From positions 1-21,398 of the IMG/VR virus record IMGVR_UViG_3300032156_001575: DNA of 21,398 nt. One strand, written 5' to 3'. Position numbers and translations under genes: made by a program. Below are positions 1 to 19,814 of this stretch, piece by piece; the stretch's first letter is position 1, and each line of letters begins with the position of its first letter. The notes beneath the pieces are model-generated. The model was not told where the DNA came from. It saw nothing but the letters and a program-made list of their open reading frames with translations, and ran no database searches. This DNA comes from a virus.

Positions 1-2
1 AA

Positions 3-5617: not shown

Positions 5618-5845
5618 GTGAAAAACGTCGTCGTGAAAAAGAATCATTCCTACTCCGGTGCCCGGCGGATGAGGGGATCCTCGTATCCCGCTTACGAACG
5701 CGACATTCCGATCTTGATCCGCATGGGTTACGTCGAGATGGATGAGAAGGCTGTCGTCAAGAAACCCCCGCCTCCAGATGAAGCGCTCTCGAAACGGACC
5801 AGGAACGGGCGATTCAGAAGGCGCGACGCGGAGGCCGACGAGTGA
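5618..5845 (+). CDS. Small basic phage protein of unknown function
   Basis: A 75-residue protein starting at GTG 5618, chosen because GGAGGAG (5607-5613) sits four bases upstream. An upstream in-frame ATG at 5579 lies within the terminator hairpin and has no ribosome site. The protein begins MKNVVVKKNHSYSGARRMR, then has YERDIPILIRMGYVE, and ends in a Pro/Arg-rich tail. Its outline (a basic patch followed by a segment resembling 'acidic-residue, aliphatic, GxV/A-E') is like small proteins often found among head genes, but I do not recognise the family. It overlaps the portal start by four bases (GTGA). A head or decoration role is inferred from position only. Confidence 0.7.
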   Translation: MKNVVVKKNHSYSGARRMRGSSYPAYERDIPILIRMGYVEMDEKAVVKKPPPPDEALSKRTRNGRFRRRDAEADE

Positions 5846-7209: not shown

Positions 7210-8327
7210 TGGACGAGAACGAACGCACGGGTTTGTTTCTAGCATTGAAGGAGGTCGTGACCGAGTTCGTCTCTAATATGATCAAAAGCCTTGGAAAGCG
7301 GATCGACGATCTGGAGGCTAGACAACTCGAACCGGGGCCTCCGGGATCTCCAGGCAAGGACGGGCGCGACGGAAAAGACGGAGAGAAAGGTCAACCGGGA
7401 CCTCCAGGGAAGGATGGAGAGAAAGCTGAACCAGGTTCGCCAGGTAAAGATGGGGAACCTGGTAAAGAGGGACCTCCAGGCCGGTCGGTGACAGGTCTGC
7501 CAGGGCCTCCAGGCGAGAAAGGCGACTCGATTACCGGGCCTCCAGGACTTGCAGGGAAAGATGGTTTGCCAGGCAAGGATGGCAGGGATGCGGTCGTCGA
7601 CGTGCCCGGTATCGTCTCGGAAGTTCTCCGGCAGATCCCGATCCCTAAAGACGGAAAAGACGGGCGCGATGGCAAAGACGGGCAGAGGGGCGAAGCTGGA
7701 CCTCCAGGGGAATCAAGGAAAGGCGAGCCTGGGCCTCTAGGCGAGAAAGGCGAGGCGATTACCGGGCCTCCGGGGCGTCCTGGAGATCCCGGATCACCTG
7801 GTCGGGACGCTCTCCAGATCGACGTTTTACCGGGATTGGATCTCCTGAGATCCTACCCGAGAGGGACCTACGCGAGGCACGAAGGCGGCATCGTCCGTTC
7901 TTTCCGCGACACGATTCCGGGTGAGACGCTGGAGGACTCGGGCTGGGAAGTCATCTGGGCCGGGATCTCCGAGATCGAGGTTTGCCAGGGAGAAGATCCC
8001 AGGCGTTTTTCCGTGACGGCTCGGTTGACCGGCAAGCAGGTCGCTCGGATCAGCGAGTTCACCATCCCGATGATGATCTACCGGGGAATCTATGATTCCG
8101 AACTCATATACCGGCACGGGGATGTCACCACCTGGGGCGGGTCGGCATGGCACTGCCAGGCGAACGAAACAAAAACGGCGCCCGGCAAATCAACCGACTG
8201 GAAATTGATGGTCAAGGAAGGCCAACGGGGCAAAGACGGGCATGACGGAAAGGACGGGCAGCCAGGACTGCCTGGGCCTCCGGGCCGTGACCTCACCCAG
8301 CTCGGATACGATGGAGGTAAACAATGA
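7206..8327 (+). CDS. Collagen-like fibre protein
   Basis: A 373-residue modular protein with no signal peptide, so a virion part rather than a secreted one. Residues 10-40 form an amphipathic, probably trimeric coiled coil. Residues 43-127 are Gly-X-Y triplets rich in PPG and KDG, residues 128-147 a non-collagen break, and residues 148-200 more triplets. Residues 215-335 are a globular region containing YPRGTYARHEGG and RGIYDSELIYRHGDVTTW with a later SAWHCQA and TDWKLMV. That last part resembles the small Trp-rich sugar-binding-like domains on phage fibres. Residues 339-362 are a short third collagen block. The ATG overlaps the portal stop (ATGA). Position between portal and connector suggests a fibre at the head or neck; receptor binding is inference. 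Confidence 0.88.
   Translation: MMDENERTGLFLALKEVVTEFVSNMIKSLGKRIDDLEARQLEPGPPGSPGKDGRDGKDGEKGQPGPPGKDGEKAEPGSPGKDGEPGKEGPPGRSVTGLPGPPGEKGDSITGPPGLAGKDGLPGKDGRDAVVDVPGIVSEVLRQIPIPKDGKDGRDGKDGQRGEAGPPGESRKGEPGPLGEKGEAITGPPGRPGDPGSPGRDALQIDVLPGLDLLRSYPRGTYARHEGGIVRSFRDTIPGETLEDSGWEVIWAGISEIEVCQGEDPRRFSVTARLTGKQVARISEFTIPMMIYRGIYDSELIYRHGDVTTWGGSAWHCQANETKTAPGKSTDWKLMVKEGQRGKDGHDGKDGQPGLPGPPGRDLTQLGYDGGKQ
7332..7805 (+). repeat. Collagen Gly-X-Y repeat tract
   Basis: Two long Gly-X-Y blocks (7332-7586 and 7647-7805) are separated by about 20 non-collagen residues. A third short block lies at 8220-8291. The charge pattern KDGRDGKDG recurs on either side of the break. One segment (7512-7545) is repeated almost base for base at 7740-7773, showing recent internal duplication. 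Confidence 0.85.
8313..8318 (+). promoter_or_regulatory. Ribosome binding site for the connector gene
   Basis: GGAGGT lies ten bases before ATG 8329, within the last codons of the collagen gene. It favours ATG 8329 over the in-frame ATG 8311, which overlaps the site itself, and over 8242. Confidence 0.6.
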
Positions 8328-8328
8328 C

Positions 8329-8688
8329 ATGAACCTCGTCGAATTGGACGAAGCCAAAAGGCACTTGAGGATCGCGTCCGATGACTCCTCGTTCGACGCG
8401 GAGGTGAACGATAAGATCCCGCTCGCCTCCGGGATGGTGCTGAACCGGATCAAGGTTCTGGTGGAGGAGGCGTCGCCGGCGACAGGCCCTCCGAAACCTA
8501 CAGACGTTTACCAGACGCTCGCGGAGAACTATTCAAAACCCATTTCGTTCGTCGAAGCCAATCTAAAGGCGGCGACCCTGGCGGTCCTGGCCGAGATCTA
8601 TGAAAACCGGCTCGCGAGCGAAGCCCAGGTATTCACGCCTTACGTGCTGGCTTTGCTCGAACCCTTCCGCGACCACGCGCTGGCCTGA
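8329..8688 (+). CDS. Head-tail connector (HK97 gp6-like)
   Basis: A 119-residue protein starting MNLVELDEAKRHLRI. The opening matches the 'vtLeeaKahLRid' N-terminus of gp6-type connectors (phage QLRG family). It continues with SSFDAEVNDKIPLAS and ends with helices including AATLAVLAEIYENR. Such proteins form a ring below the portal, onto which the head-closure protein docks. The start at ATG 8329 follows GGAGGT and lies one base after the collagen stop. In standard operons the head-closure gene comes next; here about 10 kb of fibre and sugar genes intervene before it at 18983. Confidence 0.82.
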   Translation: MNLVELDEAKRHLRIASDDSSFDAEVNDKIPLASGMVLNRIKVLVEEASPATGPPKPTDVYQTLAENYSKPISFVEANLKAATLAVLAEIYENRLASEAQVFTPYVLALLEPFRDHALA

Positions 8689-8696
8689 AGGAGAAG

Positions 8697-9410
8697 ATGA
8701 GCGATCCCCTGGTAAGCTGCGTCATGCCGACGTGGAACCGGCGCAGGTTCATCCTCGCCGCGGTGGACTGCTGGCTGAAGCAGACCTACGAGAACCGCGA
8801 GTTGGTGATCCTGGACGACGGCGAGGAACCCGTGGAGGATCTCTTGCCGGAGGATCCTATGATCCGATATGTGTTCGAGAACAAGCGGCTCTGCACTGGG
8901 GACAAACGGAACCGGGTGAACTCCCTCGCCAGGGGCGAGATCATCTGTCATTTCGACGACGACGATTGGTCCGCCGCGACAAGGATCCAGCGCCAGATCG
9001 ACATCCTGGCTCAGACGGGCAAGATCGTGACCGGGTTTTCGAACCTGCTTTTTTGGAAGGCCGACGAATCGCGTCCGATGATCTATCGCTCCCGGATCCC
9101 CGGCTACGTTTGCGGCACCACGCTTTGCTACCGGCGCGACTTTTGGGAGATCCACCGTTTTCGCTCCAAGCAGGAGGCGAGCGACAACGATTTCGTGTAC
9201 CCGATCACGCGGGAAATTGCGGCCAGCAAGGAGACGAACCAGATGGTCGCCCGCATCCACTCCTGCCACCATACCTCCAAGAAGATCGGAATCAACGAAG
9301 AGATCGGAAGGTCGGAGATCCCGGAAGAGTTCTGGGAAAACGAAAGACTAATCATCACAGGAGGGCCAAATGGCCGGAACAACGAACAGGGGGAAATACA
9401 AGTTCCTTGA
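8697..9410 (+). CDS. GT2-family glycosyltransferase
   Basis: A GT-A fold transferase that would use a nucleotide sugar. The 237-residue protein opens LVSCVMPTWNRRRFILAAVD, the typical first strand and helix of family 2 enzymes. ELVILDDGEE follows, then the metal/nucleotide-binding acidic cluster HFDDDDW (Asp87-Asp90), then GTTLCYRRDFW and a DNDFV segment that may bear the catalytic acid. There is no membrane helix. A strong AAGGAG precedes ATG 8697. Its last 41 bases overlap the next gene, giving a tail (NGRNNEQGEIQVP) that looks derived from overlap rather than fold. It is separated from the other sugar genes by the fibre module. Acceptor and sugar are unknown. Confidence 0.88.
   Translation: MSDPLVSCVMPTWNRRRFILAAVDCWLKQTYENRELVILDDGEEPVEDLLPEDPMIRYVFENKRLCTGDKRNRVNSLARGEIICHFDDDDWSAATRIQRQIDILAQTGKIVTGFSNLLFWKADESRPMIYRSRIPGYVCGTTLCYRRDFWEIHRFRSKQEASDNDFVYPITREIAASKETNQMVARIHSCHHTSKKIGINEEIGRSEIPEEFWENERLIITGGPNGRNNEQGEIQVP
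9359..9365 (+). promoter_or_regulatory. Ribosome binding site inside the GT2 gene
   Basis: AGGAGGG, four bases before ATG 9370, lies inside the glycosyltransferase coding region. It supports the start of the next gene despite the 41-base overlap. Confidence 0.65.
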
Positions 9411-9825
9411 TTGGCTTTTTCGCGGCACGGCGCTGCCGACGAACTACTACGTCGCGCTCGTGACATCGGCCGTTGCACCCGTCGCCGACACCAATACGAA
9501 ATCGGAACTGACCGAGATTCCCAACGGTAACGGCTATACCACGGGCGGCATGTCGCTGACCAAAAATGCCACGGATTTCGACGTATTAACCGAAGACGAC
9601 GTCAACGACAAGGCCATCATTCAGCTCAAAGACCTCGTGTGGACGGCGTCCGGTGGCAACTTGCCGGCTTCCGGCAGCGGCGCTCGCTATGCCATCTTCA
9701 ACGACGACAACGCCACGCAGGGCAGCCGCCTGGTGCTGGTTTTTTGGGATCTGGTTTCTGATCGCACCGTGAGCGTCGGGCAAAGCCTAACGCTTCAAAA
9801 CTGCGAACTGGACCTGATGGAATAA
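9370..9825 (+). CDS. Phage fibre-associated protein (beta-rich)
   Basis: A 151-residue protein starting MAGTTNRGKYKFLDWLFRG, then TNYYVALVTSAV, a GYTTGGMSLT segment, and an ending of short hydrophobic strands (RLVLVFWDLVSDRTVSVGQ). The plan 'LLxxxFRGxxx..yyVaLxTs...eixxxGYxxxxxs..a' is shared by small proteins encoded near phage tail-fibre genes. I assign it by this outline only and give no precise role; an adaptor or fibre-base function is inference. The ATG has AGGAGGG four bases upstream inside the preceding glycosyltransferase gene. It opens a five-gene fibre block that separates the first glycosyltransferase from the rest of the sugar cassette. Confidence 0.7.
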   Translation: MAGTTNRGKYKFLDWLFRGTALPTNYYVALVTSAVAPVADTNTKSELTEIPNGNGYTTGGMSLTKNATDFDVLTEDDVNDKAIIQLKDLVWTASGGNLPASGSGARYAIFNDDNATQGSRLVLVFWDLVSDRTVSVGQSLTLQNCELDLME

Positions 9826-9854
9826 CGATTTCACCAAGAGAAGAGGAGCCTGCA

Positions 9855-10277
9855 ATGATCGATCTATCGAAACTCGCGGTAAAAACCGAACCCAGCGAGG
9901 CGGCAGCGGCCTTGACCGGCGCGCATGTCGGGTTCGTAGTCAAGCCATCCGAGATCTATCCCGCCATGATCGCGGAAATCAAAGCTATCCTGGGCGATGA
10001 CAAATTGGCCCCGGATAAATTTCTTGACCTCAAGGGCACGCCGAACCCTCTCCGCATGTATTACGACGAAGCGAAGTCACTCGGCGCGGACGGCATGGAT
10101 CTCGCGCTCGTTCCCCATGCCGAGACGAGCGACCTGAAGGCTAGCGGAAAGATCGACCGCAATCGCGCACTTGAATGCGCGCGGAAATGGTTCACGGAGT
10201 TACTGCACCAGAGCATCGGCGGCAAGCCGATGGGACTGCGGATTCTGGCAGAGGACAAGGCGTTCAAACTCTGCTGA
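9855..10277 (+). CDS. Uncharacterised fibre-module protein
   Basis: A 140-residue soluble protein with no signal peptide or membrane segment. GAGGAG precedes ATG 9855. The start (MIDLSKLAVKTEPSEAAAALTG) is followed by an alpha-helical middle and ARKWFTELLHQSIGGKPMGL near the C-terminus. I do not recognise the family. It lies between two other fibre-module genes, is well spaced and uses codons like its neighbours, so it is very likely real. A structural or assembly role is suggested only by context. Confidence 0.7.
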   Translation: MIDLSKLAVKTEPSEAAAALTGAHVGFVVKPSEIYPAMIAEIKAILGDDKLAPDKFLDLKGTPNPLRMYYDEAKSLGADGMDLALVPHAETSDLKASGKIDRNRALECARKWFTELLHQSIGGKPMGLRILAEDKAFKLC

Positions 10278-10284
10278 GGGCTGC

Positions 10285-10743
10285 ATGAGGGTATCGGTTG
10301 CAATAGCCGTTCAGGATCGTGGCGGGGTGTTTGAGGGAGATATCGTTGCCGTCATGCCCTCCCGTCATCGGTGGGGAACGGAAGAAGTGAAGCACTTCCT
10401 CATCGTCGAACTGGACTTCCCGAACATGACCAGCATGGCGCAAGCCCAAAAGCTGACGATGGCCCATTACACCGACGGCGTGCTGCGCTGGATCAGGGGC
10501 GTGGACGCCGATGGTTTTCCGATTCCGGATTTTCCAAAAACAGGCAAGAGACGGTTCCATCTTTCTTTCACTGACATCGAATCGGCGGCAGGTTTCGCGA
10601 TCGACTGGAATCGCGTTCGCAATCGGGATGACAACTATCAACCCCTGGGCGGCGTGATGATCACGGGCTTGGGTAATTTGCGCGACAGGTTCAGGGCGGC
10701 AAAAGTATCGCTCTCCGACCTGATTGCCGTGAGGAATGCGTAG
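10285..10743 (+). CDS. Uncharacterised fibre-module protein
   Basis: A 152-residue protein. ATG 10285 is chosen because TGAGGG lies a few bases upstream and earlier in-frame starts fall inside the previous gene. It starts with a strand (MRVSVAIAVQDRGGVFEGDIVAVMP) and has a FLIVELDFPN strand, a central DADGFPIPDFPKTGKRRFH loop, and an ending with IDWNRVRNRDDNYQPLG. It appears to be a mixed alpha/beta soluble protein. I do not recognise the family. Its stop TAG is directly followed by the ATG of the beta-helix gene, so the two are probably translated together and may work together. Confidence 0.7.
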   Translation: MRVSVAIAVQDRGGVFEGDIVAVMPSRHRWGTEEVKHFLIVELDFPNMTSMAQAQKLTMAHYTDGVLRWIRGVDADGFPIPDFPKTGKRRFHLSFTDIESAAGFAIDWNRVRNRDDNYQPLGGVMITGLGNLRDRFRAAKVSLSDLIAVRNA

Positions 10744-12558
10744 ATGGCGAGTTCGAGGCGGACGGGAGGGGCAATCGAGCATGTGTCCGTTTTTGGTGCG
10801 GCCCGCGCGTACACCTCGCTTTCCACGTGGGAGGTGGATACGACTTACAATCTCGTGTCTGCCAACAAGGTTGAAGTCTTGGAATGCTACAACGACCAAT
10901 CCAGCTACGATCAGCAAATTGTTATTGCGGGAGCTACCGTCGACTCGACCCGGTTCAGGATCATCCGCCCGGCGTCGGGGAGCGGAACGAACGGGGTCAA
11001 TTTCCACAGCGGAGATCCTTCGACCGGCGTGAGATTCTTCAGCACGGCGGGCACCGTGATCACCGTCGAGGAAAGTTACTGCCAGATTCAAGATTTGGTC
11101 TGCAAGACAACGATCAACAACACCGGCACAGTTGACGCCGTGACTATCAATGGGGCCTCGGTTACGGGAATCAGATTCGTTGGCCTGCTCGTCGTGGACA
11201 GCAATAATTCCGGCAGCGGAAAGTGCAACGGCTTGACCCTGTCCAACTCCGCGGGAATAAACGGAGCCATCGACTGCCTTTTCCACAACAACGAACAGCA
11301 CGGCATCAACGTCATCATGCAGACGGCGGGCTACACCTCGTTCGCCTATAACTGCACGTCCACGAACAATGGCGCGTATAACATCCGTTTCGCCGCTACC
11401 GTCGCGACGGCGGTCGCCAAAGCTGTGAACTGCATCGGGTCCGACGGCGTGTCCGGGGACTACGTCAGGGCTGGCGGCGCGGCAGGCACCATCGACGTCA
11501 GCTACTGCACCTCAAAGGACGCAAGCGCGGAAACCTGGGGCGGAACGGGAAATCACAACAGCCACACCTTCACGTTTGCCTCTGGAACGGACAATTTCCA
11601 TCTTGCCTCGACCGACGTCGGCGCGATGGATCTCGGCACCAGTCTTGCGGCGGACGGTCTGTTTGCCTTCGACGACGATATCGATCGCCTCGTGCGCCTG
11701 GGCACCTGGGACATGGGTTTCCATGAGTACACGACCGGCAACATAACCGTCGCGCCGGGCGCTGCTGCCGGCAAGAGTACGTCGGTTGATCCGACCGTCG
11801 TTCTCGGGGCGCTCGCCCTGGCACCAGCGGCAGCGGAGAGCAGAGGAGCCGTCGTTGCCCCAACGGTCATGCAAGGCTCTCTGTCGCTGACTCCCTCCGC
11901 GGCCTCAAGTCCTGCATCGTCATCCGGTCCTGAAATCGTCCTGGGCGCATTGTCAATCTCTCCGAGTGCGGCCTACTCTGTGGCCCTGGCCGTGAATCCG
12001 TCCGCGGTGCTCGGATCACTCGCGCTCGGTCCAACAGCGGCTGAAGGCAAAGCAACTTCTTACGCCCCGACGGTTGTTCAAGGATCGCTTTCGCTTGGTC
12101 CTGTCGCGGCGGCGAGCCCTGCATCCTCGGCCGGACCGACGGTGGTTCTCGGCGCAATCCTGATCGCTCCGAACGCCGCCTACGCGGTCGTCATGACCGT
12201 GGATCCGACCGTCGAGGCGGGCGCGAACGTCACCGTGCAGCCGGGCGCGGCATCCGCGGTCATCTTATCCGTGGCTCCGACGATAGTGTTCGGGTCAATT
12301 TCCGCGACCCCGCAGGCGGCTGCCGCCATAGGTCGAAGCATTGCTCCCGACGTGATGCAGAGTTCCATGATCGTCGCGCCGACCGCGGCAGAGGCGCGGA
12401 TAAGTTCGACCGATCCGACGGTCATCCTCGGGGTGCTTCCGCAGACCATCTATGCGACGTTAATCCTGGCGAAGGCGCGAACCAATTTCTCTCTTAAAAA
12501 ACCGGGCCAGACGTTCAGCCTCAAGAAACCCGACACCGACTTCGAGGTGTTCAAATAA
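10744..12558 (+). CDS. Tailspike-like beta-helix protein with 23-residue repeats
   Basis: A 604-residue virion-type protein without signal peptide. Residues 1-330 look like a right-handed parallel beta-helix: many short strands and turns rich in Asn, Ser and Gly, with runs such as GINVIMQTAG and YNCTSTNNGAYNI, closing with LGTWDMGFHEY as in other beta-helix proteins. Residues 334-566 are about ten copies of a 23-residue repeat with consensus 'hxPxAAxxxxxxxxPTVVLGxLx'. The tail (residues 570-604) carries a tandem xFSLKKP motif. Phage spikes with such helices bind or cut surface polysaccharide, but I see no clear catalytic residues. It directly follows its neighbour's stop and leads into a small structural-looking gene and the sugar cassette. 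Confidence 0.78.
   Translation: MASSRRTGGAIEHVSVFGAARAYTSLSTWEVDTTYNLVSANKVEVLECYNDQSSYDQQIVIAGATVDSTRFRIIRPASGSGTNGVNFHSGDPSTGVRFFSTAGTVITVEESYCQIQDLVCKTTINNTGTVDAVTINGASVTGIRFVGLLVVDSNNSGSGKCNGLTLSNSAGINGAIDCLFHNNEQHGINVIMQTAGYTSFAYNCTSTNNGAYNIRFAATVATAVAKAVNCIGSDGVSGDYVRAGGAAGTIDVSYCTSKDASAETWGGTGNHNSHTFTFASGTDNFHLASTDVGAMDLGTSLAADGLFAFDDDIDRLVRLGTWDMGFHEYTTGNITVAPGAAAGKSTSVDPTVVLGALALAPAAAESRGAVVAPTVMQGSLSLTPSAASSPASSSGPEIVLGALSISPSAAYSVALAVNPSAVLGSLALGPTAAEGKATSYAPTVVQGSLSLGPVAAASPASSAGPTVVLGAILIAPNAAYAVVMTVDPTVEAGANVTVQPGAASAVILSVAPTIVFGSISATPQAAAAIGRSIAPDVMQSSMIVAPTAAEARISSTDPTVILGVLPQTIYATLILAKARTNFSLKKPGQTFSLKKPDTDFEVFK
11743..12441 (+). repeat. Ten-copy 69-bp (23-residue) repeat array
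   Basis: About ten in-frame units of 23 residues (one of 24), each with an 'xPxAA' start, a variable centre and a 'PTVVLGxLx' end. Copies 2-4 and 5-7 resemble each other position by position (VMQGSLSL/VVQGSLSL, SPASSSGP/SPASSAGP, AAYSV/AAYAV). The array therefore also has a 69-residue higher-order period. Confidence 0.88.
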
Positions 12559-12559
12559 C

Positions 12560-12901
12560 ATGGAAGAAGTCAACGAACGAACGACTCCCAAAGTGACGGT
12601 CGCTTTCACGGACGAGAACGGGGCGCCCGTGGTTCCCAACAACGCCTGGTACCGGATCGACGACGCTTTCAGCGAAACGGCGATGCTGGCCGAAACCGCG
12701 ATCTCGCCGCTCGCCTCGTCGGTCGACATAGAACTTACGCAGAGCGACACGACGATCCTCGACGAAAACAATGAGTTCGAGATCCGGCGTATCACGACCC
12801 GCTGGAAGTATTGGACGGGCAGCAGATGGAAATGGGATGCTAACGAATACTTCCTGAAAATCAAAAACCTCGCCGGAGTGACGGCGACTTCGCCCGTATG
12901 A
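12560..12901 (+). CDS. Small structural phage protein
   Basis: A 113-residue protein that looks like one beta-sandwich: KVTVAFTDENGAPVVPNNAWYRIDD, then SSVDIELTQSDTTIL, then EFEIRRITTRW and a final ANEYFLKIKNLAG strand. The 'vtFtDenGapvvP..v.yRiDD' opening is familiar from small proteins that accompany fibre genes in phages, but I cannot name the family. No good Shine-Dalgarno is present (GAGGTG lies 11 bases upstream), so it is probably translated by coupling with the spike gene two bases before it. Its stop overlaps the next ATG (ATGA). It may bind or decorate the spike; that is inference. Confidence 0.68.
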   Translation: MEEVNERTTPKVTVAFTDENGAPVVPNNAWYRIDDAFSETAMLAETAISPLASSVDIELTQSDTTILDENNEFEIRRITTRWKYWTGSRWKWDANEYFLKIKNLAGVTATSPV

Positions 12902-13584
12902 CGACGGCCATCCTCGTGACGACTTTCAACCGACCTTCAGCCCTGGAGAGATCCTTGCCTCAGATTGCCAGGCTCGGCGCACCCGTGCTGGTGGTGGACG
13001 ACGGGAGCGTGACCAGGTGGACGCGGGAACTTGAGAAGTGCGCCATCGCGGATTACCTCTACGTGCCGCGCAACCGCGGCCTCGCCGCGGCCATGAACAT
13101 CGGCCTTTCCTACTGGCTCGCGGACAAAGACGTCAGATGGATCTCGTATTTTCAGGACGACGTCGATGTCCATCCGAAAATGCTGGAGATCCTCTCCAGG
13201 TTCCAGAAGTACAGCCAGGTCTTGACCGGCCACGACGCCGGCGAGCATCGGGCGCACAAGGAGAGCGTCGTCGACGGCGTCAGCATCAAAGACAAGTGGG
13301 CCATCAGGGCGACGCACGTTCACGCCTCCGCGAGCTTCTGGCGCGACATGATGCCCATTCCTACGCGGGAGCTGGGCGCACCGAAGCGGCAGGGACTTGG
13401 CCGCGGCTTGGGTAGCGACGTCGATTGGTGGTTCGTGCGCGATAGCCCGAAATCGTCTCAGAAAACCAACCGGCCCGTGCTGTGCGTTCCCGGCCTCGTC
13501 CGGAGTTTCCTCTACAAGGCCGAGGACTCGTGTTGGAACAACCCTCAGAAGGCAGGCGAGGAGCCGCCGTTAAAGGAATGGTGA
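12898..13584 (+). CDS. GT2-like glycosyltransferase
   Basis: A second GT-A fold enzyme of 228 residues. It opens TTAILVTTFNRPSALERSL, then VLVVDDGS. A YVPRNRGLAAAMNIGLSYWL segment, typical of family 2 transferases, precedes the acidic nucleotide-sugar motif FQDDVDV (Asp87-Asp88). Later come SFWRDMMP and a DVDWWFV segment that could hold the catalytic base. No membrane helix is present. It is not a close copy of the 8697 gene; shared residues are mostly family motifs. Its ATG overlaps the preceding stop by four bases and it overlaps the methyltransferase by seven (ATGGTGA). Sugar and acceptor are unknown. Confidence 0.87.
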   Translation: MTTAILVTTFNRPSALERSLPQIARLGAPVLVVDDGSVTRWTRELEKCAIADYLYVPRNRGLAAAMNIGLSYWLADKDVRWISYFQDDVDVHPKMLEILSRFQKYSQVLTGHDAGEHRAHKESVVDGVSIKDKWAIRATHVHASASFWRDMMPIPTRELGAPKRQGLGRGLGSDVDWWFVRDSPKSSQKTNRPVLCVPGLVRSFLYKAEDSCWNNPQKAGEEPPLKEW

Positions 13585-14153
13585 ACCCGGTCGAATTCGC
13601 CCTCGGGATACCTGGATGGATGCGAGAGTTGGAACTCTCCTGGCTATCGCGGATCGCCGCGGCGCTGCCTTCGGGCGCGGTCTGGCTGGAGGTCGGATCC
13701 TGGATGGGGAAATCCTGGTCGGCGGTCGCCTTGAGTCTGCCGCTGCCGGCGACGATCATCTCCGTGGACACGTTCGACGGCGGGACCTACGACGGCGCGA
13801 CCGTCAAATATGTGAAAGAGCACGGCCCGGTGATGGAGGATTTCGTCCGGGTCCACGAACAGGTCCGGAAGGAACGTCCCGGCCTCGCGAGTTTGATCAT
13901 GGTGATGTCATCGGCGGCTGCCGCTTGGCTCGTGGCGGACCGCTCGTGTGACGTCGTCTTCATCGACGGTGACCATAAAACGAACGCCGTCCTGGAAGAC
14001 AATAGGATTTGGTCGCCTAAGATAAAATCGGGCGGGTTGCTTTGCGGGCACGACGCCGACGATCCGAACGTTCTCGCCGCACTGGAGGATCTTCCGCTTG
14101 AGCGAATGGATCCTTCCGGACGGGGAAGTATATGGTGTCGAAAGAGAAGGTAA
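13578..14153 (+). CDS. SAM-dependent methyltransferase, class I
   Basis: A 191-residue Rossmann-fold methyltransferase. WLEVGSWMGKSWSAVA (from residue 36) is the SAM-binding Gly-rich motif I, TIISVDTFDGG is motif II, and DVVFIDGDHK (Asp130) is the post-motif seen in the Methyltransf_24-type enzymes that act on sugars and small molecules. KSGGLLCGHDADDPNV resembles the next strand and its metal- or substrate-binding Asp/His residues. ATG 13578 is taken as start (AAAGGA upstream); GTG 13581 is also possible. It overlaps the gene before by seven bases and the gene after by 22. In this setting it probably O- or N-methylates a sugar, but the substrate is inferred. Confidence 0.82.
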   Translation: MVNPVEFALGIPGWMRELELSWLSRIAAALPSGAVWLEVGSWMGKSWSAVALSLPLPATIISVDTFDGGTYDGATVKYVKEHGPVMEDFVRVHEQVRKERPGLASLIMVMSSAAAAWLVADRSCDVVFIDGDHKTNAVLEDNRIWSPKIKSGGLLCGHDADDPNVLAALEDLPLERMDPSGRGSIWCRKRR

Positions 14154-14713
14154 TGATTTGGGGCGCAGGAGGTCATTCCCTGGTAGTCGCCGACATCTTG
14201 CGCGAGATGGGGTGTTTCGAAATCTGCGGTCATATCGTGGGAAGCAGGGAGCAATTGGCATCGTTGGATCCGGACGTCAAGCTGATCATCGCCATCGGCG
14301 ATTGTGACGCGCGGTCGAGGTTGGCCGGACTCGCCGGCGAAGCGGGCTTCGATTTGGTGACCGCGATCCATCCGATGGCCACGGTGGCGCGAGACACGGA
14401 GATCGGGGAGGGGACGGTGATCGCCGCGGGTGCCGTGGTCAACTCCGGATCCAGGATCGGGCGCAACGTGATCATTAATACCTGCGCGAGCGTGGACCAC
14501 GAATGCCTGGTCGAGGACGGGGCTCATATTTGCCCAGGCGCCCGCCTGGCAGGGAACGTCCGGATCGGGCGCGGTACCAAGGTCGGAATCGGCGCCAGCG
14601 TGATCGAGCGCATCAAGATCGGGACGCACTCGATCATCGGGGCCGGGGCCGTAGTCGTCAAGGACGTCCCCGACAATGCGGTCGCCTACGGCGTTCCCGC
14701 GAGGTGCCGGTGA
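14132..14713 (+). CDS. NeuD/PglD-like sugar acyltransferase
   Basis: Transfers an acyl group, usually acetyl from acetyl-CoA, to an amino or hydroxyl group of a sugar. The N-terminal domain starts VMIWGAGGHSLVVADIL, a nucleotide-sugar-binding Rossmann strand. The C-terminal half is a left-handed beta-helix of hexapeptide repeats (IGEGTVIAAGAVV, IGRNVIINTCASVDHEC, IGRGTKVGIGASV, IGTHSIIGAGAVV). His123 in SVDHEC fits the catalytic base and AHICPGARLAGNVRIG matches the family signature. ATG 14132 keeps the first strand whole; a later ATG 14153 overlaps the methyltransferase stop but would start inside it. The gene is followed at once by an aminotransferase, the usual partner of this family. Confidence 0.9.
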   Translation: MVSKEKVMIWGAGGHSLVVADILREMGCFEICGHIVGSREQLASLDPDVKLIIAIGDCDARSRLAGLAGEAGFDLVTAIHPMATVARDTEIGEGTVIAAGAVVNSGSRIGRNVIINTCASVDHECLVEDGAHICPGARLAGNVRIGRGTKVGIGASVIERIKIGTHSIIGAGAVVVKDVPDNAVAYGVPARCR

Positions 14714-15810
14714 TGAACAGGATCCTCCACGTGGGCCGACCCAACATCGGAGACCGGCAACGATTTCTGGAACGCGTCAACGCGATGCTCGACCGCAACT
14801 GGCTGACGAACGACGGGCTTCTCGTGCAGGAGTTCGAACGGGAGGTTGCCCGCTGCGTCGGAGCAAAGTATTGCGTCGCGACCTGCAACGCCACGACCGC
14901 CCTGGGGATCCTGGTCCGCGCTCTCGGATTGGAAGGCGAGGTCATCCTTCCTTCCTTCACTTTCGTCGCGACCGCGCACGCGCTGACCTGGCAGGGACTG
15001 ACGCCGGTCTTCTGCGACGTGGACGAAACGCACAACCTGGATCCGGAAGAGGTCGGGAAGCTGGTCACGGCGCGGACGAGCGCCATCCTGGGCGTTCACC
15101 TTTGGGGCCGACCTTGCGACGTCCCGGCCCTGGAGGAAATCGCCGACCGCTATGACCTGGCGCTCATCTTCGACGCGGCCCATGCGTTCGGATGTTCGGC
15201 CTGGGGAAAGCCGGTCGGAAACTTCGGGGATGCGGAAGTGTTCAGCTTTCACGCGACCAAGTTCGTAAACAGTTTCGAAGGCGGGATGATCTCGACGAAC
15301 GATATTGCCCTGGCTGCGAAGGCTCGCTTGATGCGCAATTTCGGTTTCGCCGGGCCCGACAGGGTGATCGAACTCGGCATCAACGGCAAGATGCCGGAGA
15401 TCTGCGCCGCGATGGGCTTGACCTCGCTCGAAAGCATGTGGGATTTCATAGCGGTCAACCTTCGAAACCACAAACGATATTGGGAGCGCCTGGAAAACCT
15501 CCCCGGTATCAGTCTCCTGCGCTACGACTATCGCGGGCAATTCAACTACCAGTATGTCGTCGTCGAGGTGGACGGATTCAGGGACGAACTTCAAAGGGCG
15601 CTCTGGGACGAGAACATCATGGCGAGGCGATATTTCTATCCCGGATGTCATAGGTCCGAGCCGTATGCCTCCAAGCTCCACGCGCCGCTGCCGTGGACGG
15701 AACGGCTGAGCGAGCGGGTGTTGTGCCTCCCGACGGGGACCGAGGTCGAGGAGGATGACGTCGACCGGATCTGCTCTCTCATCGAGCAAGCCGTGCTGGC
15801 AAGGTGCTGA
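14713..15810 (+). CDS. DegT/DnrJ/EryC1/StrS sugar aminotransferase
   Basis: A PLP enzyme that aminates a keto-sugar nucleotide, normally with glutamate. The 365-residue protein has family features in order: NWLTNDGLLVQEFEREVA, CNATTALGILVRAL, EVILPSFTFVATAHAL, an IFDAAHAFG segment whose Asp154 would contact the PLP ring nitrogen, and the FSFHATK motif with Lys183 as the PLP lysine, then EGGMIST. The C-terminal domain contains YQYVVVEV and RRYFYPGCHRSEPY. It starts one base into the acyltransferase stop (TGATG). The pair implies an N-acylated amino sugar. The expected 4,6-dehydratase or oxidase supplying the keto sugar is not in this window, so the host or another region must provide it. Confidence 0.92.
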   Translation: MNRILHVGRPNIGDRQRFLERVNAMLDRNWLTNDGLLVQEFEREVARCVGAKYCVATCNATTALGILVRALGLEGEVILPSFTFVATAHALTWQGLTPVFCDVDETHNLDPEEVGKLVTARTSAILGVHLWGRPCDVPALEEIADRYDLALIFDAAHAFGCSAWGKPVGNFGDAEVFSFHATKFVNSFEGGMISTNDIALAAKARLMRNFGFAGPDRVIELGINGKMPEICAAMGLTSLESMWDFIAVNLRNHKRYWERLENLPGISLLRYDYRGQFNYQYVVVEVDGFRDELQRALWDENIMARRYFYPGCHRSEPYASKLHAPLPWTERLSERVLCLPTGTEVEEDDVDRICSLIEQAVLARC

Positions 15811-16550
15811 TGCGAACGATCGGATTAGTCATGCCCTGGTGGGGAAACGCGCCCGCCTGGTTGCCGCAGTTTTTCAGGCGCGCGGCAGCGACGACGCGGA
15901 TCGAGATGATCCTGCTCGGAGACGCGGCCCGCTTCGCGCCGGAGCTGAATACGTCCAGGATGCCGGTCACGATGGACGAGTTCGAAGCCAGGGCGAGCCA
16001 GCTGGTTGGCTTCCCCGTCAGGAAGCGGAGCGAGAGTTTTCCCCGAGGGCAGTCGCTTTGCGAGCTGCGCCCGATGCTCGCGGACATGTATCCCGATCTC
16101 CTCGCGAAATATGAATGGTGGGGATGGGGCGAGTTCGATTGCGTGTGGGGCGATTGGGATTCGTTGCTCACGGATGAACTAATGGCGCGATACGACATGA
16201 TCGGCAGCAACAGTTACAGCGTCACGGGGCCGCTCACGATTTTTCGTAACGTGCCGGCGATGGCAAAACTCTATGAAAGCCGCCTTGACCTGGTCGCGAT
16301 CCCGGAATATGCGAACCTGGACGAATCCGGATTGAACGGGGTCGTGAGGGTCGCCGTGGAGGCCGGAAGGATGCGTGCTTTTTATGCCGGGGTCGAGGCC
16401 CATGACCGTCTGGAACGCTGGAACCGATGCATACTGCGGGGCAACAAACTCTATCCGATGGACGCGCAGGGCAACGTCGGAAGAGAAATCATGATTTTCC
16501 ATTTTCCGCGCACCAACGAATGGAAGTTGCGAGAGGAGGCAGCGGCTTGA
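15810..16550 (+). CDS. DUF6625-like glycosyltransferase-type protein
   Basis: A 246-residue protein starting MRTIGLVMPWWG. The best diagnostic segment is GQSLCELRPMLADMYPDLL, then YEWWGWGEFDCVWGDWDSLL. That is the 'lC.lrp.y..~~~~l~.yefWgw.D.D~v~Gdl' pattern of the DUF6625 family, believed to be GT-A-like glycosyltransferases with Asp residues in place of a DxD motif. GSNSYSVTGPLTIFRN follows, also as in that family. ATG 15810 overlaps the aminotransferase stop by one base. It has no signal peptide or membrane segment. Activity is inferred from fold resemblance and its neighbours. Confidence 0.75.
   Translation: MRTIGLVMPWWGNAPAWLPQFFRRAAATTRIEMILLGDAARFAPELNTSRMPVTMDEFEARASQLVGFPVRKRSESFPRGQSLCELRPMLADMYPDLLAKYEWWGWGEFDCVWGDWDSLLTDELMARYDMIGSNSYSVTGPLTIFRNVPAMAKLYESRLDLVAIPEYANLDESGLNGVVRVAVEAGRMRAFYAGVEAHDRLERWNRCILRGNKLYPMDAQGNVGREIMIFHFPRTNEWKLREEAAA
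16534..16549 (+). promoter_or_regulatory. Ribosome site deciding a TTG start
   Basis: AGGAGG (16534-16539) lies seven bases before TTG 16547, which overlaps the previous stop as TTGA. No ATG or GTG is nearby in frame, and the conserved metal-binding Asp pair follows at residues 8-9. This makes TTG the start of the deacetylase-like gene. Confidence 0.75.
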
Positions 16551-17248
16551 AGTTCTGCATCCGCGTCGACGACTTCGGCTGGACCTCCAGCGGGACGAAG
16601 GATCCCGGGCTCGAGATGGCGCAGAAGTATCACGCGGCCATGCAGGGACTGCCTTACCTCGCCGCGGTAATTCCTTCCTGCGTGGATGGCAAAGGTTTGG
16701 CCTGGTTGCGCTCGTGCCCGGACGCCCTTACCGTCGCCATGCACGGTTTCAATCATGAACTCAGCGGGAGCAAGGTCGCGTCCGAGTTTCACGATTCCAA
16801 CCGCGCAGAATGCCGCCTCCGGATCGCGCTGGGCAAGCGGGCTCTGCAAAACGTTCCGGTCGCGCACATGGTCTTGCCTTTCAACGCCTATGAGCCCGAC
16901 CTCGCCGAGGCTTGCTACCTGGAGGGCTTGCATTTCATTTGGGGCGGCTCGTCGCATTGTGAAAGGGAACCGAGCAGGTGGCCGGTGCCTCCTCCGCCCT
17001 ACCCGCTGGGGCGCGTGACCTTCGTGCCGAGCTGGGAACCAACTTACGCGGCTACCCTGTGGAGGATGAAGCCGACCGACAGGCCGCTGGAGGAGACGTT
17101 GCCGGCGCTTCTGGATCAGCCGGGCAAGGCAATCATCACGTTGCACATCACCTGGGAAGCGGCCAAGTGCGAGGATTTCAAAGGCGTCCGCTGGCTCGTG
17201 GACCTGATCCGGGACCGGATCATTTCGTCCGAGGAATACCTGGCATGA
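16547..17248 (+). CDS. NodB-like polysaccharide deacetylase
   Basis: A 233-residue protein with the metal site of NodB-type carbohydrate esterases. KFCIRVDDFGW gives Asp8-Asp9, and VAMHGFNHEL gives the HxxxH pair His66 and His70, which would hold a zinc or other divalent ion. It has VAHMVLPFNAYEPDLAEA and HFIWGGSSHC segments in the middle, and IITLHITWEA near the C-terminus supplying a late His. No signal peptide is present, so it acts inside the cell, unlike most peptidoglycan deacetylases. It might remove an N- or O-acyl group from a glycan precursor. The TTG start and AGGAGG site are clear. It overlaps neighbours by four bases each side. Confidence 0.78.
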   Translation: MKFCIRVDDFGWTSSGTKDPGLEMAQKYHAAMQGLPYLAAVIPSCVDGKGLAWLRSCPDALTVAMHGFNHELSGSKVASEFHDSNRAECRLRIALGKRALQNVPVAHMVLPFNAYEPDLAEACYLEGLHFIWGGSSHCEREPSRWPVPPPPYPLGRVTFVPSWEPTYAATLWRMKPTDRPLEETLPALLDQPGKAIITLHITWEAAKCEDFKGVRWLVDLIRDRIISSEEYLA

Positions 17249-18138
17249 GGATCTACAGCCTCGTGACCAAGACCGTCGAACAAGGCGGGTGGACGGGCGT
17301 GTCTCGGTTCGACTTGGAATTACGCGCAGTCCTGCCTGGGCTGATCTCCGTTACGAGATTGCCCGGTGATCTCCGGGACGACGACGTCGTGATCGCGGAC
17401 AACCACCTTTCGATGATCGTTCCCGCCGCAAACCGCAAGATCATCGTCCACCACGGGTGCGCTCTCACCCATTACCAGAGGGACCGATCCTGGAGGAGCG
17501 AGGCGACGTTGCAGATGATCGAACGCCAGCGTTTGATGTTCCTGAACTGCCTTACCGAGGCGAGCGTTCCCGTCTCCGTTTCCCCGAGCGCATGGGTGCA
17601 AGAGAGATTTTCTCAAGACGCTGCGCCGGATCTCTTCGACCTGGAGTATTCAAAAGTTATTCCCCATTGGGTCGAGCAGATCCCGTCGCTGCCTAAATCC
17701 GGCAAGCCGAAGATCATCGGGGACTGGCGCGACCATAACAAGGGCGCGGACGCTTGGAAGCAACTCGCCGTCCATCATCCTCATTGGCATTTCCAGCCGC
17801 TCGATTTCAAAGACATGGAAGGTCGGCGTCACCAATACGGCGAGGCGTCGCTCTACCTCTGCCTGTCACTTTCGGAGGGCGGATCGTATGCGGTCTGCGA
17901 CGCGGAGGCCGCAGAACTGCCTATCGTAACGACGAACGTTGGAAATTACCGGGAATTCAACGACTGCGAAGTGATTCCCTGGATGGACCGCGACCGTTCG
18001 GACCTGGTCGCCGCAGTCATCGAAAGGAAACTCGCGCGAGGCAGGACGAAGCCGTCGTTTTATGCGGCGTACACATTCGAGCGCTGGGCGTCAGCATGGC
18101 AGGAAGTGATCTCCGATGGGAACGGAGGTTTGGGATGA
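17245..18138 (+). CDS. GT4-like glycosyltransferase
   Basis: A 297-residue protein of GT-B appearance. The N-terminal half starts MRIYSLVTKTVEQGGWTGVSRF, with a basic segment and KIIVHHGCALTHYQRD. The C-terminal half has KPKIIGDWRDHNKGADAW, resembling the strand and loop that meet the nucleotide sugar. Its best motif is LSLSEGGSYAVCDAEAAELPIVTTNVG, the 'PSxxEgfGxxxxEAmAxGxPVVatdxGg' pattern of GT4 enzymes in a divergent form. It is shorter than usual GT4 proteins. ATG 17245 overlaps the deacetylase stop and the next ATG overlaps its own stop. It could extend the same glycan; its sugar is unknown. Confidence 0.78.
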   Translation: MRIYSLVTKTVEQGGWTGVSRFDLELRAVLPGLISVTRLPGDLRDDDVVIADNHLSMIVPAANRKIIVHHGCALTHYQRDRSWRSEATLQMIERQRLMFLNCLTEASVPVSVSPSAWVQERFSQDAAPDLFDLEYSKVIPHWVEQIPSLPKSGKPKIIGDWRDHNKGADAWKQLAVHHPHWHFQPLDFKDMEGRRHQYGEASLYLCLSLSEGGSYAVCDAEAAELPIVTTNVGNYREFNDCEVIPWMDRDRSDLVAAVIERKLARGRTKPSFYAAYTFERWASAWQEVISDGNGGLG

Positions 18139-18980
18139 AATCGCTTGTGATCGGCTTTGCCTCCGGCATGGGCAACTGCGTGTTCATGCTGCCGGCAGTC
18201 AAGGCCTTGAAGATCATGGGATATCGGATCTCGCTCTACGTTCAGACGGATTTCGACACCTCGCCGCTCTGGAGGCGATGCTCCTATACCGATGAAATCG
18301 TGACTGATGCGAGGGTGAATGGATCAGAGATGCTTTGCGGACAGTGGAGGCCCGCAGCCTGGAAAGGCAGGGTCGTGACGCAGTACCAGATCCCGACGAT
18401 CTATTACTGCGAATGGAAGTCCAATTTTCGACTCGCCCAGGACCGGGGATGGAAAACCGAGATCCCGGATGTATCGGATTGGTGCCGGGATCTGGATCGC
18501 GACAAGCGCTGGGACGTAGGGATCGCCCCCGGATCCAAGGGTGGGACCTGGACGCGTAAGAGATGGCCTGGCATGGAAGCGGTCGCCGGCCGTTTGCTCG
18601 AGCTGGGAAAATCCGTCGCGGTGTTCGGCTTGCCGGAGGACGGCGTGGAATCCGTTCCAGGGTGGCACGTAGATACCCGGAACATCGGAAACCTGCCGGA
18701 CGCCCTGGCGGGATGCCGGATCTTGATCGGCAACGACTCCGGAGTGACTCAGCTGGCCTCCTCGCTGGGGATTCCGGTCGTGATCGTCTATACGGCGTCG
18801 AGCGAAACAAAGACGCCTCCCATCCAAGAACCGAACGTGAAGATCGCCGCGGACGTGACCTGCCGCCCGTGCGTGAGCACTCCGCGGTGGCACGGATGCG
18901 CCGATTGGATCTGCCACAGGATTGACCCGGAGAAGGTGGTCGCCGCCGGACTCGAGCTGCTGAACAAAGCGAAGGAGTGA
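18135..18980 (+). CDS. GT9-like (heptosyltransferase-type) glycosyltransferase
   Basis: A 281-residue GT-B enzyme similar to family 9, which in bacteria adds heptose to lipopolysaccharide. It starts KSLVIGFASGMGNCVFMLPA, the family's GxGN opening, and has GIAPGSKGGTWTRKRWP at the start of the second domain. Then come AVFGLPEDG and the strong LIGNDSGVTQLASSLGIPVV, matching the 'xGnDtGxxHlAaAlgxPxv' nucleotide-binding motif. Cys-rich residues follow (VTCRPCVSTPRWHGCADWIC), possibly metal binding. GGAGG lies upstream of ATG 18135. It is the last sugar gene; its stop is two bases from the head-closure ATG. The heptose specificity is not established here. Confidence 0.86.
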   Translation: MKSLVIGFASGMGNCVFMLPAVKALKIMGYRISLYVQTDFDTSPLWRRCSYTDEIVTDARVNGSEMLCGQWRPAAWKGRVVTQYQIPTIYYCEWKSNFRLAQDRGWKTEIPDVSDWCRDLDRDKRWDVGIAPGSKGGTWTRKRWPGMEAVAGRLLELGKSVAVFGLPEDGVESVPGWHVDTRNIGNLPDALAGCRILIGNDSGVTQLASSLGIPVVIVYTASSETKTPPIQEPNVKIAADVTCRPCVSTPRWHGCADWICHRIDPEKVVAAGLELLNKAKE

Positions 18981-18982
18981 CG

Positions 18983-19324
18983 ATGAATACTCCGCGCATC
19001 GGAGAAATGAAGGAAAGGATCAACCTCATAGAGGTCACTTCGCCTTTCAACATCTACGGGGAAGGAACGCTGGCTTCGACCTTCGCGAGCAACGTCCCCG
19101 CCAAGATTGAGTACCTGGCCGGAGGAGAGAACGAGGAAACGGAACAGGTGCAGAGCGCGACGCAGGGATTCAACGTGTGGATCCGCTACAAGGCTGGCGT
19201 GACCGCGTTCCAGCAGATCGTATGGGGAAGCAGGCGCCTCGTGATGACGGGGCCTCCGGAGGAGATCGTGCGACGGCGATGGATACTTATCCACGCCAAA
19301 GGGTCGACCGACCGCAAGCTGTGA
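18983..19324 (+). CDS. Head closure/head-tail adaptor protein
   Basis: A 113-residue protein of the phage head-tail joining family (PF05521-like; SPP1 gp16/HK97 gp7 type). It opens RIGEMKERINLIEV, has VPAKIEYLAGGE and a GFNVWIRYKAGV strand, then RRLVMTGPPEE and RRRWILIHAKG, all in the family's usual order. These proteins cap the connector after DNA packaging and present a face to the tail. ATG 18983 is chosen over GTG 18977 because AAGGAG (18972-18977) serves the ATG at correct spacing. It returns the operon to normal order after about 10 kb of fibre and sugar genes. Confidence 0.86.
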   Translation: MNTPRIGEMKERINLIEVTSPFNIYGEGTLASTFASNVPAKIEYLAGGENEETEQVQSATQGFNVWIRYKAGVTAFQQIVWGSRRLVMTGPPEEIVRRRWILIHAKGSTDRKL

Positions 19325-19385: not shown

Positions 19386-19814
19386 ATGCCAGAATCGGAA
19401 GGCGTACTTGGTCTCAATACTCAACTGAAGCTCGGCGACGGCACCTCGCCGGAGGTGTTCACGCTGATTAAGGAGATTTTCGGCGCTATCGACGGGCCGG
19501 AGATCACCCAGCAATACGTGGACTTCACCCACATGCAATCGGCGGGCGGGTTCGAGGAGCAGAAGGCGTCCTTCAAGACTCCCGGCCAGGTGACCTGCAC
19601 GGTCCATTACCTCAAGGACGACGTGCAGCACGAGGCGCTCGTCGCCGCGGCGGTGGCCGTTCCGACGACCCTGAAGCATTTCACGCTCACGTATCCGGAC
19701 GGGACCGTGATCCCGTTCTCGGCATACCCGAGCGTGAAGTTCAACTCGGACACGAAAGGCAAATTCACGATGGCTTTGACACTCAAGTTGTCGGCGGGAT
19801 TCGTCGTAAGTTAA
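19386..19814 (+). CDS. Tail tube (major tail) protein
   Basis: A 142-residue tail tube candidate. Short beta strands predominate: GLNTQLKLGDGTSPEVF, then IDGPEITQQYVDFTHM, VTCTVHYLKDD, KHFTLTYPDGTVIPFSAYPSVKFN and TMALTLKLSAGF, the pattern of lambda gpV/TTP-type proteins. AAGGAAA precedes ATG 19386 after a 61-base gap holding T runs but no convincing terminator. Directly downstream are the tail chaperone genes, as expected for a tail tube gene in a siphovirus. Many copies would stack in rings around the tape measure. Confidence 0.85.
   Translation: MPESEGVLGLNTQLKLGDGTSPEVFTLIKEIFGAIDGPEITQQYVDFTHMQSAGGFEEQKASFKTPGQVTCTVHYLKDDVQHEALVAAAVAVPTTLKHFTLTYPDGTVIPFSAYPSVKFNSDTKGKFTMALTLKLSAGFVVS

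What the first reader, a model, noticed from the sequence alone, without database searches (positions are those of the whole stretch)
8697..18980. Sugar-modification cassette embedded in the head-tail interface operon
Nine carbohydrate genes (two GT2, methyltransferase, NeuD/PglD-like acyltransferase, DegT aminotransferase, DUF6625-like, NodB-like deacetylase, GT4-like, GT9-like) lie between the connector (8329) and head-closure (18983) genes, which are usually neighbours. None has a signal peptide, and all share the operon. This suggests a glycan made and attached during virion assembly, or a surface glycan made late in infection. The virion-glycosylation reading is inference; the gene content and position are read from sequence.
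Basis: partly seen in the sequence, partly recalled or inferred. Interest (0 to 1): 0.85.

Follow-up and report, generated by a model that had tools for sequence, protein, structure and literature searches.

The report
Swappable sugar cassette between phage neck genes
An uncultured virus of bacteria carries nine sugar-handling genes wedged between two genes that are normally neighbours and build its neck, and many related viruses keep different sugar genes at the same spot, which suggests that these viruses coat their own particles with changeable sugars.

Summary
Nine carbohydrate genes lie on one strand between the connector (8329) and head-closure gene (18977). In 94 relatives with both flanking genes the median gap is 9 bp; the window's 10.3 kb is the largest. 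Misassembly is excluded: phages from other metagenomes have the same layout with different sugar genes. In 24 contigs a GT2a relative lies between head markers and head-closure/tail-tube genes (three had been picked by their portal).

The cassette has two layers. A core (GT2a, GT2b, NodB-like, GT4, GT9) is shared, wholly or in part, with six other phages (four measured: 34-69% identity), two of which lack the collagen-like gene. An accessory block (methyltransferase, VioB/PglD-like acyltransferase, DesI-like aminotransferase, DUF6625), found complete only here, predicts an N-acylated 4-amino-4,6-dideoxyglucose, as on mimivirus fibrils and Pseudomonas flagellin. No enzyme has a membrane segment.

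Best reading: a modular locus that glycosylates a virion protein during assembly (0.55). Acceptor and glycan are unproven; host-glycan remodelling remains the main rival. Neither GT2a nor GT9 has a relative among 50,697 phage records.

The parts
5842..7209 (+). portal protein; left landmark, used to find relatives
   Evidence: 578 related stretches in viral contigs; prophage relatives mostly in Pseudomonadota
7206..8327 (+). collagen-like (Gly-X-Y) protein next to the portal; candidate acceptor
   Evidence: PF01391 1.5e-20; phrog_1289 2e-42
8329..8688 (+). gp6-like head-tail connector; left border of the insert
   Evidence: PF05135 2e-5
8697..9410 (+). GT2a, GT-A glycosyltransferase; the most widely conserved gene of the locus
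   Evidence: PF00535 1.4e-17; AF2 pLDDT 90.7, PDB matches heparosan synthase, SpsA, 5hea, TarP; acidic D87/D89/D90 invariant in 12 relatives
9370..9825 (+). fibre-like accessory protein
   Evidence: PF23140 weak, phrog_644 2.5e-10
9855..10277 (+). unknown small protein of the fibre module
   Evidence: no family match
10285..10743 (+). unknown small protein of the fibre module
   Evidence: no family match
10744..12558 (+). 604-aa fibre-like protein with an Ala/Ser/Pro/Thr-rich region (residues 336-575)
   Evidence: phrog_8501 minor tail protein 0.0027; composition
12560..12901 (+). unknown small protein of the fibre module
   Evidence: no family match
12898..13584 (+). GT2b, GT2 glycosyltransferase (core)
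   Evidence: PF00535 3.6e-11; 52-69% identity to L082, L163, L164, L165
13578..14153 (+). SAM methyltransferase (accessory)
   Evidence: PF13578 9e-14
14132..14713 (+). NeuD/PglD/VioB-type N-acyltransferase (accessory)
   Evidence: TIGR03570 195 bits, cut-off 160.8; best solved relatives PerB, PglD, VioB
14713..15810 (+). DegT aminotransferase of the DesI kind: predicted dTDP-4-keto-6-deoxyglucose 4-aminotransferase (accessory)
   Evidence: TIGR04427 488 bits, below its cut-off of 650; best solved relative 2po3 1e-120, next 7e-54
15804..16550 (+). DUF6625 protein (accessory; also in the L003 cassette)
   Evidence: PF20330 9e-24; L003 PF20330 2e-25
16547..17248 (+). CE4/NodB-like deacetylase (core)
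   Evidence: invariant D8 D9, H66, H70, H200; CE4 fold matches of a pLDDT 67 model
17245..18138 (+). GT4-like glycosyltransferase (core)
   Evidence: PF13692 1.6e-4, below cut-off; 47-57% identity to four relatives; no solved relative found
18135..18980 (+). GT9 (heptosyltransferase-like) glycosyltransferase (core)
   Evidence: PF01075 1.5e-13; 43-54% identity to four relatives
18977..19324 (+). head-closure/head-completion protein; right border
   Evidence: PF05521 2.3e-8; start overlaps the GT9 stop by 4 bp
19386..19814 (+). major tail (tail-tube) protein; right landmark and candidate acceptor
   Evidence: phrog_158 1.4e-12

Best explanation
This is a modular glycosylation locus of a siphovirus-like phage that probably decorates one or more of its own virion proteins in the cytoplasm during late assembly. 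Steps read from sequence: soluble GT2a, GT2b, GT4 and GT9 enzymes and a CE4-type deacetylase form a core kept between head and head-closure/tail genes in several phages; an accessory block (DesI-like aminotransferase, VioB/PglD-like acyltransferase, methyltransferase, DUF6625) is added here. Inferred steps: the host's dTDP-4-keto-6-deoxyglucose is aminated to dTDP-4-amino-4,6-dideoxyglucose (viosamine, Qui4N) and N-acylated; the core GTs build a short glycan on a residue of a neck, tail or fibre protein; the amino sugar, possibly O-methylated, becomes an end or branch. Exchange of cassette contents between phages would give different surface sugars on similar particles, for example to escape recognition or tune adsorption.
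For: Place conserved with content varied: window, L003, L010, plus L006, L008, L162-L165, L182 and others; 24 contigs with GT2a relatives flanked by head markers and HCP/MTP, three of them (L003, L006, L010) first fetched by portal similarity. All 14 records over 33 kb with a PF05521 head-closure gene have GT2a within about 7.1 kb of it; for the ten picked by GT2a alone a uniform model gives about 10^-5, not corrected for relatedness. Core GTs are diverged about as much as HCP/MTP: L163 HCP 45, MTP 45, GT2a 55, GT2b 60, GT4 53, GT9 52%; L164 49, 51, 53, 52, 55, 43%. L164 and L165 have a different capsid/portal type without a collagen-like protein in the stretch seen, yet keep the module. In the window's supported portal clade 16 of 17 labelled rows have GT genes at this place. 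No TM segments and co-directional overlapping genes. Amino-sugar reading. Precedents: Freeman et al. 2023, glycans on capsid and tail-tube C-termini of mycobacteriophages (cited in PMC12619734); P. syringae flagellin modified viosamine (PMC3927599); mimivirus 2OMeVio4NAc (PMC10117803; PMC9614988).
Against: No acceptor was identified: relatives with and without the cassette do not differ in Ser/Thr content of MTP or HCP; the MCP C-terminus and connector do differ, but phylogeny and MCP type confound this. GT2a and GT9 have no relative in 50,697 phage records, so there is no homology to the proven mycobacteriophage enzymes among those records. GT9 resembles LPS heptosyltransferases, and TarP, a fold match of GT2a, acts on wall teichoic acid. 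The portal-to-HCP interval also takes non-sugar cargo (L154 collagen and Gly-rich genes), so position alone proves nothing about function. 34 of 90 GT2a contigs had no detectable head marker. The sugar label on the portal tree is partly biased because some loci were fetched through GT2a.
Confidence: 0.55

Rival explanations
1. The enzymes modify a host glycan (LPS core, O-antigen or capsule precursor) on the cytoplasmic face late in infection, to block superinfection or to stop released particles sticking to debris.
For: GT9 resembles heptosyltransferase II (TIGR02195 4e-11; 1psw 4e-6), and such enzymes act as soluble proteins; GT2a fold matches include TarP; 7 of 16 related records carry an integrase, so some relatives are temperate; prophage relatives are mostly in Pseudomonadota.
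Against: No flippase, polymerase or membrane-bound GT as in gtr conversion operons. The genes sit inside the structural operon, not as a separate moron. In several phages they are kept between head and tail genes and diverge like the neck genes.
Confidence: 0.25
2. The locus is a recombination hot spot for optional late cargo; the sugar genes are one kind of cargo with no single target, and fibre-type cargo can take their place.
For: Fibre modules at the same place in L005, L006, L008 and in the window; collagen and Gly-rich genes in L154; the cassette beyond GT2a is largely different in L003 although its portal is 72% identical.
Against: Does not explain the fixed order GT2a-GT2b-...-GT4-GT9 kept at 43-69% identity in several phages or the clustering of the trait on the portal tree (4 changes against about 32 in shuffles). 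It is compatible with, rather than opposed to, virion modification.
Confidence: 0.12
3. The glycosyltransferases hypermodify phage DNA as defence against restriction.
For: Phage GTs that glycosylate DNA are known (Pyle et al. 2024, as cited in PMC12619734).
Against: No thymidylate-synthase/dCMP-hydroxymethylase family gene in 15 of 16 records, with a working control; no Tet_JBP in 13 records, though its control was silent. The only PF00303 match is in L167's record, where none of the head/tail markers used was found near GT2a.
Confidence: 0.05
4. The contig joins phage and bacterial DNA by misassembly.
For: None found.
Against: Same layout in phages from other metagenomes; ORFs at both borders are overlapping or nearly touching; even GC across the insert.
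Confidence: 0.01

Closest known systems
Virion glycosylation of mycobacteriophages (Freeman et al. 2023; known here only through PMC12619734, and own knowledge)
   Same: Phage-encoded glycosyltransferases; virion proteins as target (inferred here).
   Different: GT2a and GT9 find no relative among the phage records searched, which include mycobacteriophages. Here the genes form a multi-enzyme cassette with its own amino-sugar pathway inside the neck operon of phages whose prophage relatives are mostly in Pseudomonadota.
Mimivirus viosamine cluster (PMC10117803, PMC9614988)
   Same: Virus-encoded 4-aminotransferase and N-acetyltransferase for Vio4NAc, with a predicted methyltransferase; GTs in the same cluster; the virus also encodes collagen-like proteins.
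   Different: Mimivirus encodes its own 4,6-dehydratase and uses UDP sugars; none is in the window, and a dTDP sugar is predicted. Mimivirus's products are measured, here not.
Pseudomonas syringae viosamine island and flagellin glycan (PMC3927599)
   Same: vioA aminotransferase, vioB acyltransferase, vioM methyltransferase and a transferase for a terminal modified viosamine on a protein.
   Different: No VioR/VioS/ACP acyl genes here; acceptor unknown.
Prophage-encoded TarP and gtr serotype conversion (TarP fold match; rest from own knowledge)
   Same: Phage GTs acting on sugars; TarP shares the GT-A fold with GT2a.
   Different: These act on host surface polymers; gtr systems use membrane proteins, absent here.

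Membership tests
Phage virion glycosylation system | Phage-encoded glycosyltransferases | tested here: met
   GT2a, GT2b, GT9 above Pfam cut-offs; GT4-like below
Phage virion glycosylation system | Homology of GT2a/GT9 to glycosyltransferases of cultured phages, mycobacteriophages included | tested here: not met
   no tblastn match in 50,697 phage records at E 1e-5; the other GTs were not searched there
Phage virion glycosylation system | Glycan present on a virion protein | not testable with these tools
   needs mass spectrometry
N-acyl-viosamine (Qui4NAc) pathway | 4-aminotransferase for dTDP-4-keto-6-deoxyglucose | tested here: inconclusive
   best family DesI by a wide margin (2e-146; 2po3 1e-120) but below the equivalog cut-off (488 of 650 bits)
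N-acyl-viosamine (Qui4NAc) pathway | NeuD/PglD/VioB N-acyltransferase | tested here: met
   TIGR03570 195 bits against cut-off 160.8
N-acyl-viosamine (Qui4NAc) pathway | NDP-glucose 4,6-dehydratase in the same cluster | tested here: not met
   no Epimerase/dehydratase match among the insert's genes; host RmlB assumed; an Epimerase-family gene is in the L003 cassette
N-acyl-viosamine (Qui4NAc) pathway | sugar O-methyltransferase | tested here: inconclusive
   PF13578 methyltransferase present; no solved relative; substrate unknown
Phage DNA hypermodification by glycosylation | base hydroxylation/hydroxymethylation gene (TET/JBP or dCMP/dUMP hydroxymethylase) | tested here: not met
   PF00303 absent in 15 of 16 records, control rings; PF12851 absent in 13, control silent; window is a fragment
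gtr-type serotype conversion | membrane flippase/polytopic GT | tested here: not met
   no 19-residue window above 1.94 on the Kyte-Doolittle scale in any insert protein
CE4 (NodB) deacetylase | metal triad Asp-His-His and NodB fold | tested here: met
   D8 D9 / H66 / H70 invariant in three sequences; top fold matches are CE4 enzymes, model pLDDT only 67

The most novel reading that the evidence does not exclude
A family of uncultured phages carries a dedicated, exchangeable glycan locus in the neck operon and coats particle proteins with lineage-specific glycans. In this phage an N-acyl (perhaps O-methyl) viosamine is added to a portal-adjacent collagen-like fibre or neck fibre: a bacterial-virus parallel to mimivirus fibrils and to the BclA collagen-like spore glycoprotein.
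Probability: 0.2. Interest if true: 0.82.

Novelty: new variant of a known kind. Interest (0 to 1): 0.63.

Why it matters
Proven glycosylation of phage particles is rare. A fixed genome position where sugar-enzyme sets are exchanged between related phages would show that virion glycans are a diversifying trait, as capsule and O-antigen loci are for bacteria. It gives a simple marker (distance between connector and head-closure genes, GT2a next to either) for finding such phages, and prophage relatives in cultured hosts make tests possible.

Tried and rejected
Misassembly: rejected. DNA glycosylation: tested by PF12851 (control silent) and PF00303, not supported. gtr-like conversion: no membrane proteins. 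Ser/Thr-rich C-terminal acceptor tails by analogy with mycobacteriophages: no signal in MTP or HCP; differences in MCP and connector are confounded by phylogeny. Collagen-like protein as obligatory acceptor: weakened, because L164 and L165 keep the core without a Gly-X-Y protein in the stretch seen. DegT scan of viral contigs found nothing. Homology of the window's fibre module to those in L005/L006/L008: none found with phmmer. PF01973 (MptE-like, a family that I recall as once including Maf flagellin glycosyltransferases) hits in the first gene after the connector of five relatives are all below cut-off, so not used as evidence. Literature searches for this layout returned nothing useful in the open-access library; the library lacks most subscription papers, and the mycobacteriophage and DNA-glycosylation papers themselves were not held.
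Full report
WHAT WAS CHECKED. The window is an entire 21,398-base IMG/VR record, classed linear, so probably a fragment. Its genes run in one direction: HNH gene, terminase small and large subunits, a protease-major capsid fusion, a small ORF, portal, a collagen-like gene, connector, the insert, head-closure protein, major tail protein and further tail genes. Between connector and head-closure protein lie GT2a, five non-sugar ORFs (9370-12901), then GT2b, methyltransferase, NeuD/PglD-like acyltransferase, DegT aminotransferase, DUF6625 protein, NodB-like deacetylase, GT4-like and GT9 genes. From 12558 on the spacing between successive genes runs from 1 bp to -22 bp, the last overlap joining GT9 to the head-closure gene.

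IS THE LAYOUT UNUSUAL? A portal scan of viral contigs kept 80 loci and a scan of species genomes kept 80 more, mostly in Pseudomonadota. With iterated profiles for connector, head-closure and tail-tube proteins, 94 loci have both connector and head-closure genes: median gap 9 bp, 51 at most 50 bp apart, 12 over 2 kb, 3 over 5 kb. Those three are the window (10,289), L010 (8,037) and L003 (6,394), and all three hold sugar enzymes. L003: GT2a before the connector, then GT2-like, methyltransferase, PIG-L deacetylase, an unmatched gene, a short DegT, WbqC, NAD-epimerase family, DUF6625, GT2 and a further weakly matching GT2-like gene. L010: GT2, methyltransferases, a GT1-like, a nucleotide-sugar-transferase-like gene, a GT47, and a GT2a relative next to the head-closure gene. 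L003 shares 72% portal identity with the window, yet beyond GT2a (66%) and a weakly similar DUF6625 (24%) and DegT (E 4e-7) the cassette is different. So the site is kept and its content exchanged.

CORE AND ACCESSORY LAYERS. Scans with GT2a and a GT4 alignment found phages that share GT2a-GT2b-...-GT4-GT9 in the same order: L082, L163 and L165 have all four, with a NodB gene in L082 and L165; L164 keeps the order with the connector after GT2a. L179/L188 and L182/L187 carry both GT2a and GT4 relatives; their full order was not read. Identities of the core genes (34-69%) are comparable to those of head-closure and tail proteins (41-51%), which suggests long association rather than recent gain. 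L164 has a distant portal (25%), and L164 and L165 have a separate capsid gene and no Gly-X-Y protein in the stretch seen; the module therefore follows the neck and tail genes rather than the capsid type. The methyltransferase-NeuD-DegT-DUF6625 block was found complete only in the window.

HOW WIDE IS IT? 309 stretches in viral contigs encode GT2a relatives. Among the 90 contigs examined, 24 have GT2a between head markers and head-closure/tail-tube genes, about 30 more show one side only, and 34 show no marker. Three of the 24 (L003, L006, L010) had first come through their portal. In 28 records over 33 kb, 14 carry PF05521, and in all 14 it lies within about 7.1 kb of GT2a. For the ten of these found through GT2a alone, uniform placement gives about 10^-5; the phages are related, so this is only a guide. 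In the window's supported portal clade of 19, 16 of 17 labelled rows have GT genes at this place; over the tree the label needs 4 changes against about 32 in shuffles, with the caveat that some rows were fetched through GT2a and that the tree is a quick one with some long branches. Insert genes of relatives are rich in methyltransferases and GTs, but fibre or glycine-rich cargo also occurs.

WHAT SUGAR? DegT is by far most like DesI (2po3 1e-120, next 7e-54; TIGR04427 488 bits, below its cut-off), which aminates dTDP-4-keto-6-deoxyglucose at C4. The adjacent acyltransferase passes the NeuD/PglD/VioB model, with PerB, PglD and VioB as best solved relatives. A methyltransferase lies beside them. 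By established pathway knowledge this gives an N-acylated 4-amino-4,6-dideoxyglucose, possibly O-methylated, the kind of sugar on P. syringae flagellin (PMC3927599), on mimivirus fibrils (PMC10117803 and PMC9614988) and, as anthrose, on BclA (PMC9614988). No dehydratase is in the insert; host RmlA/RmlB is assumed. Whether DegT makes the C4 amino sugar was not tested.

WHAT ACCEPTOR? Unknown. All enzymes lack transmembrane segments, which fits work in the cytoplasm on proteins or on lipid-linked cores. Candidates: the collagen-like protein (not obligatory, since L164 and L165 lack one in the stretch seen), the 604-aa fibre-like protein with an Ala/Ser/Pro/Thr-rich region, head-closure and tail-tube proteins. 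A composition test found no clear signal. GT2a has a confident GT-A fold (pLDDT 90.7) closest to heparosan synthase, with SpsA, 5hea and TarP among further matches; these include enzymes acting on polysaccharide and teichoic acid, so fold does not settle the acceptor.

RIVALS. DNA glycosylation lacks any known base-hydroxymethylation gene in nearly all relatives tested. Misassembly is excluded. Host-glycan remodelling late in infection remains possible, since soluble LPS-core-type enzymes are related to GT9 and some relatives are temperate. A bare cargo hot spot explains the variability but not the ordered, co-diverging core.

VERDICT. A real, conserved and variable glycosylation locus in the neck operon; virion glycosylation is the most likely role, not demonstrated. 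New variant of a known kind.

Noticed in passing
L164:9548-10675: GT2a relative lies in frame at the C-terminal end of a 375-aa ORF with about 150 residues of unrelated N-terminal sequence; possible fusion to a small structural protein, or an upstream in-frame start.
   Followed up: partly
window 7206-8327: Collagen-like gene directly after the portal; relatives of it found in 141 loci of the portal-family set, so a portal-adjacent Gly-X-Y or related protein is common in this lineage.
   Followed up: partly
window 3366-5537: Prohead protease and major capsid protein matched in one ORF (phrog_617, phrog_10, phrog_80).
   Followed up: no
window 9370-12901; L005:7266-12095; L006:5088-8705; L008:6096-8494: Fibre-like gene modules of no detectable mutual homology at the same portal-to-HCP interval.
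   Followed up: partly
L162:1512-2285 and window 1-848: An ORF that by eye looks like a GIY-YIG homing endonuclease inside the L162 cassette (not tested with a profile), and an HNH gene at the window start; such genes could help cassette exchange.
   Followed up: no
L048:12571-13203, L052:3786-4439, L058:7959-8660, L033:12046-12684, L015:13345-14031: First gene after the connector has sub-threshold similarity to PF01973 (MptE-like).
   Followed up: partly
L003:16487-17101: DegT homologue of only 204 aa in the L003 cassette, much shorter than the family.
   Followed up: no
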